IMG/VR virus record: IMGVR_UViG_3300033153_011833
Span: 1-63,320 of that record
From: a virus
DNA length: 63,320 bases
Reading direction: 5' to 3' (one strand)
Under the pieces are notes generated by a model. The model ran no database searches, was not told the origin of the DNA, and saw nothing but the letters and a program-made list of their open reading frames with translations. Below are positions 23,424 to 48,278 of this stretch, piece by piece (positions within the stretch are counted from its first letter, which is position 1; the number at the start of each line of letters is the position of its first letter). The translations under genes were made by a program, and so were the position numbers.

Positions 23424-23765
23424 ATGGAAAACTACACAAAAGAAACAATACTGAAGATGACTAAACAGGAATTACATGAGGCAAGAAGAGAATTATTAAA
23501 AGGTGAAATCAATGATAATTGCTCGAACTGCTCATACTGCTCACGCTGCTCATACTGCTCATACTGCTCATACTGTTCGGACTGCTCATACTGCTCACAC
23601 TGCTCAGATTGTTCATACTGCTCAAACTGCTCGGACTGCTTAGAATGCTCAGACTGCTCAGACTGCTCGCACTCAGTTGGGCTTAAAAAGGGGCGATATT
23701 TGATTTGCAACGTGCAGTTAACAGAAGAAGAATACCAAACTAAAATTAAAGAATTGAATTTATAA
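23424..23765 (+). CDS. CSX tripeptide-repeat protein 1 (113 aa)
   Basis: The start ATG 23424 is preferred because AAGGAG lies nine bases before it. The N-terminus (MENYTKETILKMTKQELHEARREL) is helical. Residues about 36-88 are 17 consecutive tripeptides of the form X-Cys-Ser, where X is mostly Tyr, Asp, His or Asn; one unit ends in Leu. The C-terminus (SVGLKKGRYLICNVQLTEEEY...) is shared with a longer paralog at 47775..48278. Cys at every third residue could bind metal ions or form disulfides in a thin regular helix. I do not know this family. The DNA repeat is 9 bp and also leaves antisense frames open. Confidence 0.8.
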   Translation: MENYTKETILKMTKQELHEARRELLKGEINDNCSNCSYCSRCSYCSYCSYCSDCSYCSHCSDCSYCSNCSDCLECSDCSDCSHSVGLKKGRYLICNVQLTEEEYQTKIKELNL

Positions 23766-30996: not shown

Positions 30997-31698
30997 ATGA
31001 AAAATGAAAAGTCTTATTATGCCGTTATACCTGCTCCTGTCAGATATTGTCAAAACCTGTCTCCAAATGCAAAATTACTATATGGCGAAATAACAGCACT
31101 ATGTAATAAGGAAGGATATTGCTGGGCGTCCAATAATTATTTCGCCAAATTGTATGGTGTTCATACTATAACAATCAGTAGATGGATTAAGAATTTGGAG
31201 GATAATCATTTTATAATTTGTAAAATGAAAAATAAGAATAAAAGAAGAATTTATATTCATGAACCCTTAGCAAAAATGCTAAGGGGGTTTAGCAAAAATG
31301 CTAAGGGGGTTAAGCAAAAATGCTTAGGGTATAATAATAATATAACTAATAAAACAAATATATCTGTTAAAATGATTGATAAAAGATTTGCCATGAAATT
31401 ATTTAAGTTAGTACGGGCTAAAAGAAAAATAAATATCAATCATCAAAAATGGTCCTGTCATTTTGCAAAATTAAGGGTCAAATCTGGAATAAAAAAACAA
31501 AGAATTGCCAAGGTATTAAATTGGTATGAAAATCATATTGGAGAAAGATTTGTGCCTGTATCATATTCAGCCGGAAGTTTTTGCAGTAAATTTCTTAGAA
31601 TAGAAGATGCCATGAACCGATACATTGAAAATATCGAATCTGGCGAAGCTCCTCTTGTGTATAAAAAACGTATTGTAAAACATACGATTGTCGATTAA
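30997..31698 (+). CDS. Replication initiator-like protein with iterons in its gene
   Basis: The 233-residue protein has an N-terminal winged-helix/HTH (LSPNAKLLYGEITALCNKEGYCWASNNYFAKLYGVHTITISRWIKNLEDNHFI) of the type found in phage and plasmid replication initiators. The middle (residues about 90-110) is LAKMLRGFSKNAKGVKQKCLG, translated from three iterons in the DNA. The C-terminal half is basic and helical. The DnaB-like helicase follows, so this gene is the likely origin-binding protein, like lambda O. Confidence 0.78.
   Translation: MKNEKSYYAVIPAPVRYCQNLSPNAKLLYGEITALCNKEGYCWASNNYFAKLYGVHTITISRWIKNLEDNHFIICKMKNKNKRRIYIHEPLAKMLRGFSKNAKGVKQKCLGYNNNITNKTNISVKMIDKRFAMKLFKLVRAKRKININHQKWSCHFAKLRVKSGIKKQRIAKVLNWYENHIGERFVPVSYSAGSFCSKFLRIEDAMNRYIENIESGEAPLVYKKRIVKHTIVD
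31267..31329 (+). repeat. Three 22-bp iterons (candidate replication origin)
   Basis: Three copies of a 22-bp unit, core AGCAAAAATGCT, lie at 31269..31280, 31291..31302 and 31313..31324, an exact 22-base spacing. Each has an internal dyad: TTAGCA/TGCTAA in the first two and TAAGCA/TGCTTA in the third. They sit inside the initiator gene and are followed at once by an AT-rich stretch (31330..31385), just as in lambda ori. Confidence 0.85.
31330..31385. other. AT-rich stretch beside the iterons (candidate unwinding element)
   Basis: This stretch is almost all A and T (TATAATAATAATATAACTAA and onward) and lies immediately right of the three iterons. In iteron-type origins the AT-rich element is melted by the bound initiator. 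It is coding as well. Role inferred from arrangement. Confidence 0.6.
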
Positions 31699-33351: not shown

Positions 33352-33804
33352 ATGAAAGATGAAATCAAAAGAGAACTTAAAAAAATTAAAAAACAACACG
33401 GTGGATTGTTAAGAGCTCGTGATGTCGTTAACTATGCAAGGGATAGTAAAACAGCTTTACACAATTGTTTTGAATGGGACGACAAAATAGCTGGTGAAGC
33501 ATATCGCATTCACCAGGCGAGAAGGATAATAAATGTACATGTCGAAATGATGCCAAATGCAACAGAGCCTATGAAAGTTTTTGTTAGCCTAAAAAAAGAC
33601 AGGTGCAAACCTGGAGGGGGTTATCGAGAGATGAAACGTATTATAAAGGTAAAGCCCTGGAGAGAGGCTTTGTTTGAACAGGCGTTAGATGAGTTAATAT
33701 CAATAAAAAAACGATACAAACAAATAAGAGAAATTGTAATTGCTGTAGAACCTGCTATCGATGCAATTATTAAAGCCAAAAAACAAGAAAGGAAAGTTGG
33801 GTAA
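33352..33804 (+). CDS. Conserved phage protein, unknown (150 aa)
   Basis: A 150-residue helical protein with LLRARDVVNYARDSKTALHNCFEWDDKIAGEAYRIHQARRII, a pattern I have seen in many phages next to recombination genes and often to the gene that follows here. There is no catalytic motif. Its stop lies at the beginning of a G-rich pentamer array. Function unknown. Confidence 0.7.
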   Translation: MKDEIKRELKKIKKQHGGLLRARDVVNYARDSKTALHNCFEWDDKIAGEAYRIHQARRIINVHVEMMPNATEPMKVFVSLKKDRCKPGGGYREMKRIIKVKPWREALFEQALDELISIKKRYKQIREIVIAVEPAIDAIIKAKKQERKVG

Positions 33805-33918
33805 GGCAGGTGTGGTACGGTAAGGTTGGGTGGGGTCTGGTCCGGTACGGTGTGGTCAGGTAAGGCAGGTATGGTGCGGTGAGGTCGGGTCTGGTGGGGT
33901 GGGGTGGGGTAAGGCAGG
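33802..33918. repeat. TNNGG pentamer array 1
   Basis: The 117 bases are made only of TNNGG pentamers and three TAAGGCAGG spacers: spacer at 33802..33810, ten pentamers to 33860, spacer at 33861..33869, eight pentamers to 33909, and spacer at 33910..33918. The NN varies (GT, AC, AA, TG, GG, CT, CC, CA, AT, GC, GA, CG). GG every five bases allows two-quartet G-quadruplexes. It begins at the stop of the upstream gene and ends before the next ribosome site. Confidence 0.9.
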
Positions 33919-33949: not shown

Positions 33950-34612
33950 ATGGCAAAGACAAAAAAGAAAAAAGCAGAAAAGGTTGATGGGGTTCATCTT
34001 ACAATAGCTCCCCCAAATATGGAAACGGGACGATTTCTTATTAGGGGGACATCGCCTTTGGTTATGAATAAATTCTCACACAAAGCAAAAGTGGAGATGA
34101 TGGAAACACAAAAGGCAGGAAGCACAGCAAAAAAAGGAAAGAAAAGGGCCCCAAAAGATTTTAAGACTATGTGTGAAGCAGCAAAACATATATCTACTCA
34201 AGGATGGTGCGGTATTCCTGCTCCGGCTTTCCGCAATGCAATGGTTTCCGCTTGTAAGATTGTGGGGTTTGCTATGACCCGTGCAAAATTATCTGTGTTT
34301 ATAGAAGCAGATGGTTTTGATAAAGATGATGGCACTCCCCTTGTAAAAATCACAAAAGGCAAATCCAAACGATTGGACCTTCCTGTACGAATAGCAATGG
34401 GGTCAACCGATATTCATTCTCGTCCAATGTGGGAACCTGGTTGGGAAGCTCTTGTTCGTATAAGATATGATGCTGACCAATTCACATTGGAGGATATTTC
34501 AAATCTCCTTGTTCGTGTGGGTATGCAAACAGGAATACTTGAAGGACGTCCTGACAGCAAATCCTCTTGTGGGATGGGTTGGGGTTTGTTCGATGTTTGC
34601 GGAACCAAATAA
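33950..34612 (+). CDS. Conserved phage protein flanked by two G-rich arrays (220 aa)
   Basis: The 220-residue protein has a Lys-rich start and then an ordered alpha/beta domain: IRGTSPLVMNKFSHKAKVEMME, GIPAPAFRNAMVSACKIVGFAMTRAKL, EADGFDKDDGTPLVKITKG, ISNLLVRVGMQTGILEGRPDSKSSCGMGWG. I recognise this as a widespread phage family of unknown function. The Gly-rich end is reminiscent of RAMP-type RNA-binding folds, but that is only a resemblance. GGAAAG precedes the ATG. TNNGG arrays lie on both sides. Confidence 0.75.
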   Translation: MAKTKKKKAEKVDGVHLTIAPPNMETGRFLIRGTSPLVMNKFSHKAKVEMMETQKAGSTAKKGKKRAPKDFKTMCEAAKHISTQGWCGIPAPAFRNAMVSACKIVGFAMTRAKLSVFIEADGFDKDDGTPLVKITKGKSKRLDLPVRIAMGSTDIHSRPMWEPGWEALVRIRYDADQFTLEDISNLLVRVGMQTGILEGRPDSKSSCGMGWGLFDVCGTK

Positions 34613-34616
34613 TATG

Positions 34617-34675
34617 GCAGGTGAGATTAGGTATGGTAAGGTCGGGTAGGGTCGGGTAAGGCAAGGCAAGGCAGG
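34617..34675. repeat. TNNGG pentamer array 2
   Basis: After GGCAGG come TGAGA, TTAGG, TATGG, TAAGG, TCGGG, TAGGG, TCGGG, TAAGG, then CAAGG twice and CAGG. It ends in the same AAGGCAGGTAAA as array 1. It begins two bases after the stop of the flanked gene. The match in unit, ending and position shows the two arrays are related. The rest of the gap to 34776 holds only AT-rich sequence and the next ribosome site. Confidence 0.88.
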
Positions 34676-34776: not shown

Positions 34777-35388
34777 ATGAAATTAACCGTTAAAAAAGAA
34801 ACTGTTATAGAACTATTTGAAACAATAGGTTTCAAAACAGTTAGAACCAAAGATGACGAATGGCTTTTGAAAAAGGCAAAAGAACTTCCTGAAATTGTCA
34901 ATGCTGCCAATGTTAAAAACCCCAAAATGAAAAGACTTTTGAAATCATTAGCAAATGCTTCCGAAATTGCTTTCAAAGACGGAAAGAAAAAGGTTTCAAA
35001 AAAAGAAGATAAAACACCGAAACCAACGAAGGCAACGAGGACAAAAAAGAAAATCAAACAAACTGAAAAAAAGACAGAACCAAAAAAGAAGAAAACCAAG
35101 CAAACTAAAAGAAAAGCTGTGAGTAAAACCAACGGAGGGAAGAAGAAAAAGACAACAAAGAAAACAAAAGCCAAGAAGACAGAATCTACTGGAAAAGATA
35201 TCTTTGGCACTCGTCTAAGTAGTAAGATGTCAAAAGTTAATAAATGCTTGAATGAAAACCCAAAAAGCATGAAAGAGCTTATGAAGCAATCTGGGATAGA
35301 AACATCTTTTTACAATCATCTTAATGGACTCGTTAAAAAAGGTCTGGTCCAAAGGGATGATAACAAAAAGTATTTTTTGAAAAAGTAA
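34777..35388 (+). CDS. Two-domain protein with Lys-rich linker and C-terminal winged helix (203 aa)
   Basis: An N-terminal helical domain (residues 1-65, MKLTVKKETVIELFETIGFKTV...) is joined by about 75 residues of Lys/Thr-rich low complexity to a C-terminal winged-helix-like unit (SKVNKCLNENPKSMKELMKQSGIETSFYNHLNGLVKKGLV). The first domain belongs to a common phage family of unknown function; the last looks DNA-binding. A chromatin-like or nucleic-acid-tethering role is plausible. Confidence 0.65.
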   Translation: MKLTVKKETVIELFETIGFKTVRTKDDEWLLKKAKELPEIVNAANVKNPKMKRLLKSLANASEIAFKDGKKKVSKKEDKTPKPTKATRTKKKIKQTEKKTEPKKKKTKQTKRKAVSKTNGGKKKKTTKKTKAKKTESTGKDIFGTRLSSKMSKVNKCLNENPKSMKELMKQSGIETSFYNHLNGLVKKGLVQRDDNKKYFLKK

Positions 35389-47774: not shown

Positions 47775-48278
47775 ATGAAAAAATACACGAAAGAAGCAAT
47801 ACTAAAGATGACTAATCGGGAATTACATAAAGTAAGAGGAATGTTATTAAAAGGTAGAGCCAATGCTGACTGCTCACACTGCTCATACTGCTCATACTGC
47901 TTGAATTGTTCACACTGTTCAGAATGCTTGGGCTGCTCGGATTGCTCAGATTGCTTGGACTGCTCGGATTGCTTGGGCTGCTCATATTGCTCAGATTGCT
48001 TGGACTGCTCGAATTGCTCAGATTGCTCACACTGCTCAGATTGTTCAAACTGCTCATACTGCTCACACTGCTCAGATTGTTCATACTGCTCATACTGCTC
48101 ACACTGCTCAGATTGTTCATACTGCTCATACTGTTCGGACTGTTTGGACTGTTTGGATTGCTCAAACTCAGTTGGGCTTAAAAAGAGGCAATATATGATT
48201 TGCAACGTGCAGTTAACAAAAGAAGAATATGAAACTAAAATTAAAGAATTGAGTTTAGAAGCGATAAACAATGAATAA
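47775..48278 (+). CDS. CSX tripeptide-repeat protein 2 (167 aa)
   Basis: This longer paralog of 23424..23765 has the same helical start (MKKYTKEAILKMTNRELHKVRGML), then 33 X-Cys-Ser (or X-Cys-Leu) tripeptides over residues about 36-134, and the same end (SVGLKKRQYMICNVQLTKEEYETKIKEL). The ends are much alike, but repeat number nearly doubles, so the repeat tract expands and shrinks. X is mostly Asp, Tyr, His or Asn. Cys density would allow a long metal- or disulfide-rich rod. It lies downstream of the recombinase. Confidence 0.8.
   Translation: MKKYTKEAILKMTNRELHKVRGMLLKGRANADCSHCSYCSYCLNCSHCSECLGCSDCSDCLDCSDCLGCSYCSDCLDCSNCSDCSHCSDCSNCSYCSHCSDCSYCSYCSHCSDCSYCSYCSDCLDCLDCSNSVGLKKRQYMICNVQLTKEEYETKIKELSLEAINNE

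What the first reader, a model, noticed from the sequence alone, without database searches (positions are those of the whole stretch)
33802..33918. TNNGG pentamer array punctuated by three TAAGGCAGG units
Eighteen pentamers, each T-N-N-G-G with free NN, lie between three identical nine-base spacers in the order spacer, ten, spacer, eight, spacer. It is not coding in register, not a known repeat class and very G-skewed. GG every five bases could fold into two-layer G-quadruplexes or act as a protein-binding ladder, a packaging signal, or a crossover site (chi-like).
Basis: seen in the sequence. Interest (0 to 1): 0.82.

Follow-up and report, generated by a model that had tools for sequence, protein, structure and literature searches.

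The report
Phage VIPR guide-RNA array with Vipr gene
The odd five-base ladder is very probably a string of guide RNAs from a VIPR system, a recently described RNA-guided weapon that phages use against rival DNA and that is related to the Cas7 proteins of CRISPR.

Summary
The array is real and far beyond chance. They flank gene 33950-34612, whose 220-aa product has a predicted Cas7/Csm3 (RAMP) fold. A neighbour gene (33352-33804) has a homologue beside it in 89 of 90 relatives. The RAMP gene occurs in 30 of 45 virus records with degenerate GGTNN arrays, against 1 of 46 control records. Of 81 loci found through the gene, 66 have a sense-strand GGY/NN array within 1.2 kb, against 2 antisense. Its HMM also finds the Vipr of phage phiSUSP1. 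This matches VIPR (PMC13142463, 2026 preprint), in which GGY/NN vrRNAs guide Vipr to double-stranded DNA through the NN pairs. It is a new member of a known kind, with GGCA-bracketed, apparently tail-less guide blocks. Named phages carry it unannotated (Cheoctovirus mycobacteriophages, Gordonia phages, cyanophage Cy-LDV1). No target was found for the window's guides. G-quadruplex, packaging and chi readings are not supported.

The parts
33352..33804 (+). Candidate VIPR accessory gene (vap-like), 150 aa, phrog_15946 family
   Evidence: phrog_15946 E 6.8e-19. A homologue lies beside the Vipr homologue in 89 of 90 loci. AlphaFold model pLDDT 87 but pTM 0.44, no PDB fold match. No sequence similarity to ORFs at the SUSP1 locus, best E 0.5.
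33802..33808 (+). TAA stop of the upstream ORF plus the first GGCA mark (33805-33808)
33809..33863 (+). Guide block vr1, (GGTNN)11, NN = GT AC AA TG GG CT CC AC GT CA AA
33864..33867 (+). GGCA mark between vr1 and vr2
33868..33912 (+). Guide block vr2, (GGTNN)9, NN = AT GC GA CG CT GG GG GG AA
33913..33916 (+). GGCA mark closing vr2
33950..34612 (+). vipr: 220-aa stand-alone RAMP/Cas7-fold protein, phrog_4652 family
   Evidence: phrog_4652 E 1.7e-11. Model pLDDT 84.9, pTM 0.79. Best structure matches are CRISPR RAMP subunits: Cmr1 Foldseek E 6e-6, Csm3 Z 12.6. The family HMM finds the SUSP1 Vipr, E 6.6e-11.
34616..34619 (+). GGCA mark opening vr3
34620..34669 (+). Guide block vr3, 10 units (one GATTA, two GGCAA), NN = GA TA AT AA CG AG CG AA AA AA
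34670..34673 (+). GGCA mark closing vr3

Best explanation
This is a VIPR (Viral Interference Programmable Repeat) locus of a phage. The array is transcribed, in the direction of the neighbouring genes, into guide RNAs (vrRNAs). Vipr (33950-34612), a small RAMP protein, coats the RNA, probably one protomer per GGYNN pentamer. The GGY triplets are held by the protein and the NN dinucleotides face outwards. Together the NN pairs select a double-stranded DNA target read as NNxNNxNNx, and binding represses a gene of a competing phage or satellite. Three guides are encoded (11, 9 and 10 units), bracketed by GGCA. Shown here: the array, its orientation and its linkage to the gene; the predicted Cas7 fold; homology to the SUSP1 Vipr; the constant accessory neighbour. 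Taken from the preprint, not shown here: guide transcription, RNP formation, the one-base skip, repression. Inferred: one protomer per pentamer, GGCA as the guide boundary, and that the target is a competing element.
For: Degenerate GGTNN arrays co-occur with the vipr HMM in 30 of 45 virus records against 1 of 46 control records with other GGTNN repeats (Fisher p 8e-12). The test in the other direction holds too: 66 of 81 loci found through Vipr have a sense-strand window of at least 26/30 GGY matches within 1.2 kb, against 2 antisense and 0 shuffled. The 50 listed fold matches are all chains of CRISPR effector complexes or their RAMP subunits, mostly Csm3/Cas7. The HMM hits an ORF of phiSUSP1 (KT454805.2) flanked on the same strand by GGYNN arrays, one on one side and a cluster on the other, as the preprint describes for SUSP1. 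Blocks between GGCA marks number mostly 8-12 units, mode 10, in 176 blocks, close to the preprint's 9-16. An accessory gene is adjacent in 89 of 90 loci. The same architecture with GGCNN units occurs in Cheoctovirus mycobacteriophages, Gordonia phages and Cy-LDV1.
Against: No target was found: vr1 (20 or 22 fixed bases) has no exact match in IMG/VR, and its 20-base form none in GTDB genomes. The two vr2 hits are at chance level. A local test of 149 guides did not prefer the one-base skip over 0 or 2, and guides from two relatives found nothing. There is no long structured 3' tail like that of SUSP1 vrRNA, and vr1-vr2 do not fold better than shuffles. Five close Vipr homologues (L123, L126, L127, L129, L133) have no array in the vipr-vap gap, although L123 has blocks further downstream. 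Only 66, not all, of the 81 Vipr loci pass the array threshold.
Confidence: 0.9

Rival explanations
1. The array RNA binds Vipr but is not a guide: the protein-RNA filament acts as a decoy or scaffold, or controls expression of the vipr operon itself, because the arrays lie in its untranslated regions.
For: vr1 and vr2 lie directly upstream of vipr and vr3 directly downstream, all in sense. No target was found for any of the guides tested.
Against: The NN pairs vary freely within and between arrays while GGY is kept, which decoys or autoregulation would not need. The homologous SUSP1 system is programmable by NN alone (PMC13142463).
Confidence: 0.06
2. A double-stranded DNA element: a protein-binding ladder, packaging signal, chi-like site or G-quadruplex.
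For: The runs are G-rich with a 5-base period on one strand.
Against: Strict sense orientation to one gene family, linkage to a Cas7-fold protein, and 4-base GGCA marks that break the period. Relatives have GGCNN/GACNN versions that keep the period but not the G-run pattern.
Confidence: 0.02
3. Neutral pentamer expansion (slippage) without function.
For: Some records hold perfect GGTCG or GGTCA runs, and block duplications are visible in L008.
Against: NN is nearly free while GGY is fixed across unrelated phages with the same punctuation. Arrays track one gene family and one strand.
Confidence: 0.01

Closest known systems
VIPR systems (Vipr + vrRNA; PMC13142463, doi 10.64898/2026.04.26.720920)
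   Same: Small phage-encoded RAMP protein homologous to the SUSP1 Vipr, flanking intergenic arrays of YNNGG repeats with fixed GGY and hypervariable NN in blocks of about 9-16, minimal two-gene locus with an accessory protein.
   Different: Guide blocks are bracketed by a 4-base GGCA and lack the structured tail of SUSP1. The accessory protein (phrog_15946) is unlike SUSP1 ORFs by sequence. Whether this is one of the preprint's seven types (perhaps its 'staggered arrays with overlapping vrRNAs') could not be checked, as its supplement was not readable here.
Class 1 CRISPR Cas7 family (Csm3, Cmr4, type VII Cas7)
   Same: Predicted fold: Csm3 Z 12.6 over 152 residues, rmsd 3.2; C-terminal glycine-rich segment GMGWG.
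   Different: About 10% identity, stand-alone in a phage, no CRISPR array or other cas genes found beside it; guide period 5 instead of 6 (the latter from general knowledge).
TRAP (trp RNA-binding attenuation protein) sites, (G/U)AG-NN repeats
   Same: About 11 triplets spaced by two or three free bases, bound as RNA by a protein oligomer (general knowledge).
   Different: Different triplet and different protein fold; no TRAP homologue was searched for specifically.

Membership tests
VIPR | RAMP-fold Vipr protein (single RRM core, G-loop, thumb), homologous to characterised Viprs | tested here: met
   Cas7/Csm3 fold Z 12.6, Foldseek E 6e-6 to Cmr1. The family HMM hits the phiSUSP1 ORF at E 6.6e-11 in a genome search and 8.9e-14 by hmmsearch on the local ORFs. 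Thumb and G-loop were not examined residue by residue.
VIPR | vrRNA sequence of 9-16 YNNGG repeats with fixed GGY and variable NN beside vipr | tested here: met
   Blocks of 11, 9 and 10 units flanking the gene; arrays at 66 of 81 relatives.
VIPR | Minimal locus with vipr plus an accessory (vap) gene | tested here: met
   phrog_15946-like gene at 89 of 90 loci. Identity with one of vap1-6 is not known.
VIPR | Conserved 3' tail after the repeat tract (structured in the SUSP1 clade) | tested here: inconclusive
   Only the short shared end GGCAGGTAAA follows the two arrays. vr1-vr2 do not fold better than shuffles, z +1.55; vr3 z -2.5.
VIPR | Transcribed small RNA that copurifies with Vipr | not testable with these tools
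   Needs sRNA sequencing and pull-down.
VIPR | DNA targets readable with the one-base skip rule | tested here: inconclusive
   No target for vr1; vr2 hits at chance level; no preference for skip 1 in a small local set.
Class 1 CRISPR-Cas | CRISPR array of identical repeats with cas operon | tested here: not met
   No such array in the tandem-repeat list of the window; the vipr and 33352 proteins have no PADLOC match.

The most novel reading that the evidence does not exclude
The GGCA-bracketed, tail-less guide arrays with the phrog_15946 accessory protein form a VIPR type not yet described, in which GGCA both closes one guide and opens the next, and which works with an accessory protein whose fold has no match in the PDB.
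Probability: 0.2. Interest if true: 0.6.

Novelty: new member of a known kind. Interest (0 to 1): 0.5.

Why it matters
VIPR was described only in 2026 and is proposed as the ancestor of CRISPR RAMPs. This locus shows an independent, sequence-only route to the same system and links it to two phage protein families of unknown function (phrog_4652 and phrog_15946). It also points to cultivated, named carriers, Mycobacterium phages such as Saal and Brocalys and Gordonia phages such as UmaThurman and ODay, where guide use can be tested directly.

Tried and rejected
A TRAP-like RNA-binding site was my first idea from the triplet plus two-base pattern; I dropped it once the neighbour gene proved to be Cas7-fold and the VIPR preprint was found. 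Coding sequence: minus-strand ORFs run through the arrays, but I take them as a by-product of the ACCNN repeat. Rfam: no match in the window or in 9 array loci, so no hammerhead ribozyme was recognised there. A first literature search with repeat terms found nothing relevant. The Vipr alignment A1 was too diverse for a pattern search, so the closer set A3 was used. Target searches: no vr1 match in viral or genome collections, no self-target in the window, none for a Saal guide in IMG/VR, none in 233 genomes of the family of L174 (a Rhodanobacteraceae genome) for a guide of its VIPR locus. A structure search for the accessory protein gave nothing. phrog_4652 and phrog_15946 carry no function in PHROGs; Pfam and PADLOC had no match for either protein.

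Full report
OBSERVATION. The array exists exactly where described. Runs of five GGTNN with up to two mismatches match 22 times in the window against 0.04 expected, all on the + strand in two clusters. The more telling parse is GGCA-(GGTNN)11-GGCA-(GGTNN)9-GGCA, and a third GGCA-bracketed block of ten lies at 34616-34673. So arrays sit on both sides of one gene, 33950-34612, and the first TAA is the stop codon of the gene before it.

RELATIVES. I sorted the hits by eye into about 45 records with long degenerate arrays and a remainder of perfect, short-period or probably coding repeats. Many degenerate arrays show the same GGCA mark. Relatives of the 33950 protein were fetched independently. In some of them the gap between this gene and the homologue of 33352 holds GGCNN/GACNN pentamers with GGCA marks; in five the gap is only about 40-60 bases and holds no array.

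LINKAGE. An HMM of the 33950 family finds a member in 30 of 45 records with degenerate arrays and in 1 of 46 control records (p 8e-12). A few of those records also seeded the HMM, so I ran the test in the other direction as well. Among 81 loci fetched by the protein, 66 have a sense-strand ten-pentamer window scoring at least 26 of 30 within 1.2 kb, 2 on the antisense strand, and 0 after shuffling. The shuffle kept only base composition. A homologue of the neighbour 33352 is present in 89 of 90 loci, downstream of the gene in 83 and upstream, as here, in 6.

THE PROTEIN. The AlphaFold model (pLDDT 84.9, pTM 0.79) matches CRISPR RAMP proteins throughout: Cmr1 Foldseek E 6e-6, Csm3 Z 12.6 over 152 residues, at about 10% identity. 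The accessory protein has no PDB match.

IDENTIFICATION. A literature search with Cas7-like, phage-encoded, tandem repeat and array found PMC13142463, a 2026 preprint describing VIPR. There, a phage RAMP protein (Vipr) binds vrRNAs of 9-16 YNNGG repeats; GGY is fixed, NN is hypervariable, and the NN pairs recognise double-stranded DNA with one skipped base per repeat. The authors report transcription, copurification, programmable repression and phage control with SUSP1 VIPR. Our family HMM finds an ORF of phiSUSP1 (KT454805.2) flanked by GGYNN arrays on the same strand. I take this ORF to be the tested Vipr; the preprint's own coordinates were not readable here.

NAMED PHAGES. The same element, in GGCNN form, stands upstream of gp51 of Mycobacterium phage Saal and of its homologue in 13 further Cheoctovirus phages, next to gp19 of Gordonia phage ODay, over the annotated gp40 of UmaThurman, and in cyanophage Cy-LDV1. 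Between Cheoctovirus phages whose two neighbouring genes are 97-100% identical, arrays gain, lose or exchange whole GGCA-bracketed blocks. Gorge was compared without gaps there, so its low identity reflects a frame shift of the comparison.

TARGETS. With the one-base skip, vr1 and vr2 read as plausible codon pairs, but no exact match to vr1 exists in IMG/VR, and none to its 20-base form in GTDB genomes. The two vr2 hits are expected by chance (I estimate one or two expected). The window has no self-target. A local comparison of skip lengths was uninformative. The skip rule therefore remains unconfirmed for this clade.

CONCLUSION. This is a VIPR locus, a new member of a known kind. What is added here is the GGCA-bracketed arrangement, the link to phrog_4652 and phrog_15946, and cultivated carriers. 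Whether the GGCA arrangement is one of the seven types already described could not be decided.

Noticed in passing
window 47868-48151 (+, ORF 47775-48278) and 23520-23668 (+ frame): Two paralogous proteins made of long Cys-Ser-X tripeptide repeats (CSYCSDCSN...), sharing the stretch SVGLKK after the repeats; no Pfam match for the first.
   Followed up: partly
window 34777-35388: Gene after vr3: lysine-rich stretch plus C-terminal winged helix-turn-helix (TrmB E 1.9e-6). Whether it belongs to the locus is unknown.
   Followed up: partly
L143 4625-4948 (Gordonia phage UmaThurman gp40); L146 4611-4880 (Pipp gp43): Annotated hypothetical proteins lie over GGYNN guide arrays and are probably spurious ORFs.
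   Followed up: partly
L014 2247-3361; L008 4600-5047; L121 6114-6498: Arrays with other punctuation: a repeated AAGGAATGGTTTAATGAATTTAAT between blocks in L014, GGCTAATG in L008 and L121. These may be other VIPR types with tails.
   Followed up: no
window 31267-31329: Three 22-bp tandem repeats (TTAGCAAAAATGCTAAGGGGGT) inside the replication-initiator-like ORF, possibly origin iterons.
   Followed up: no
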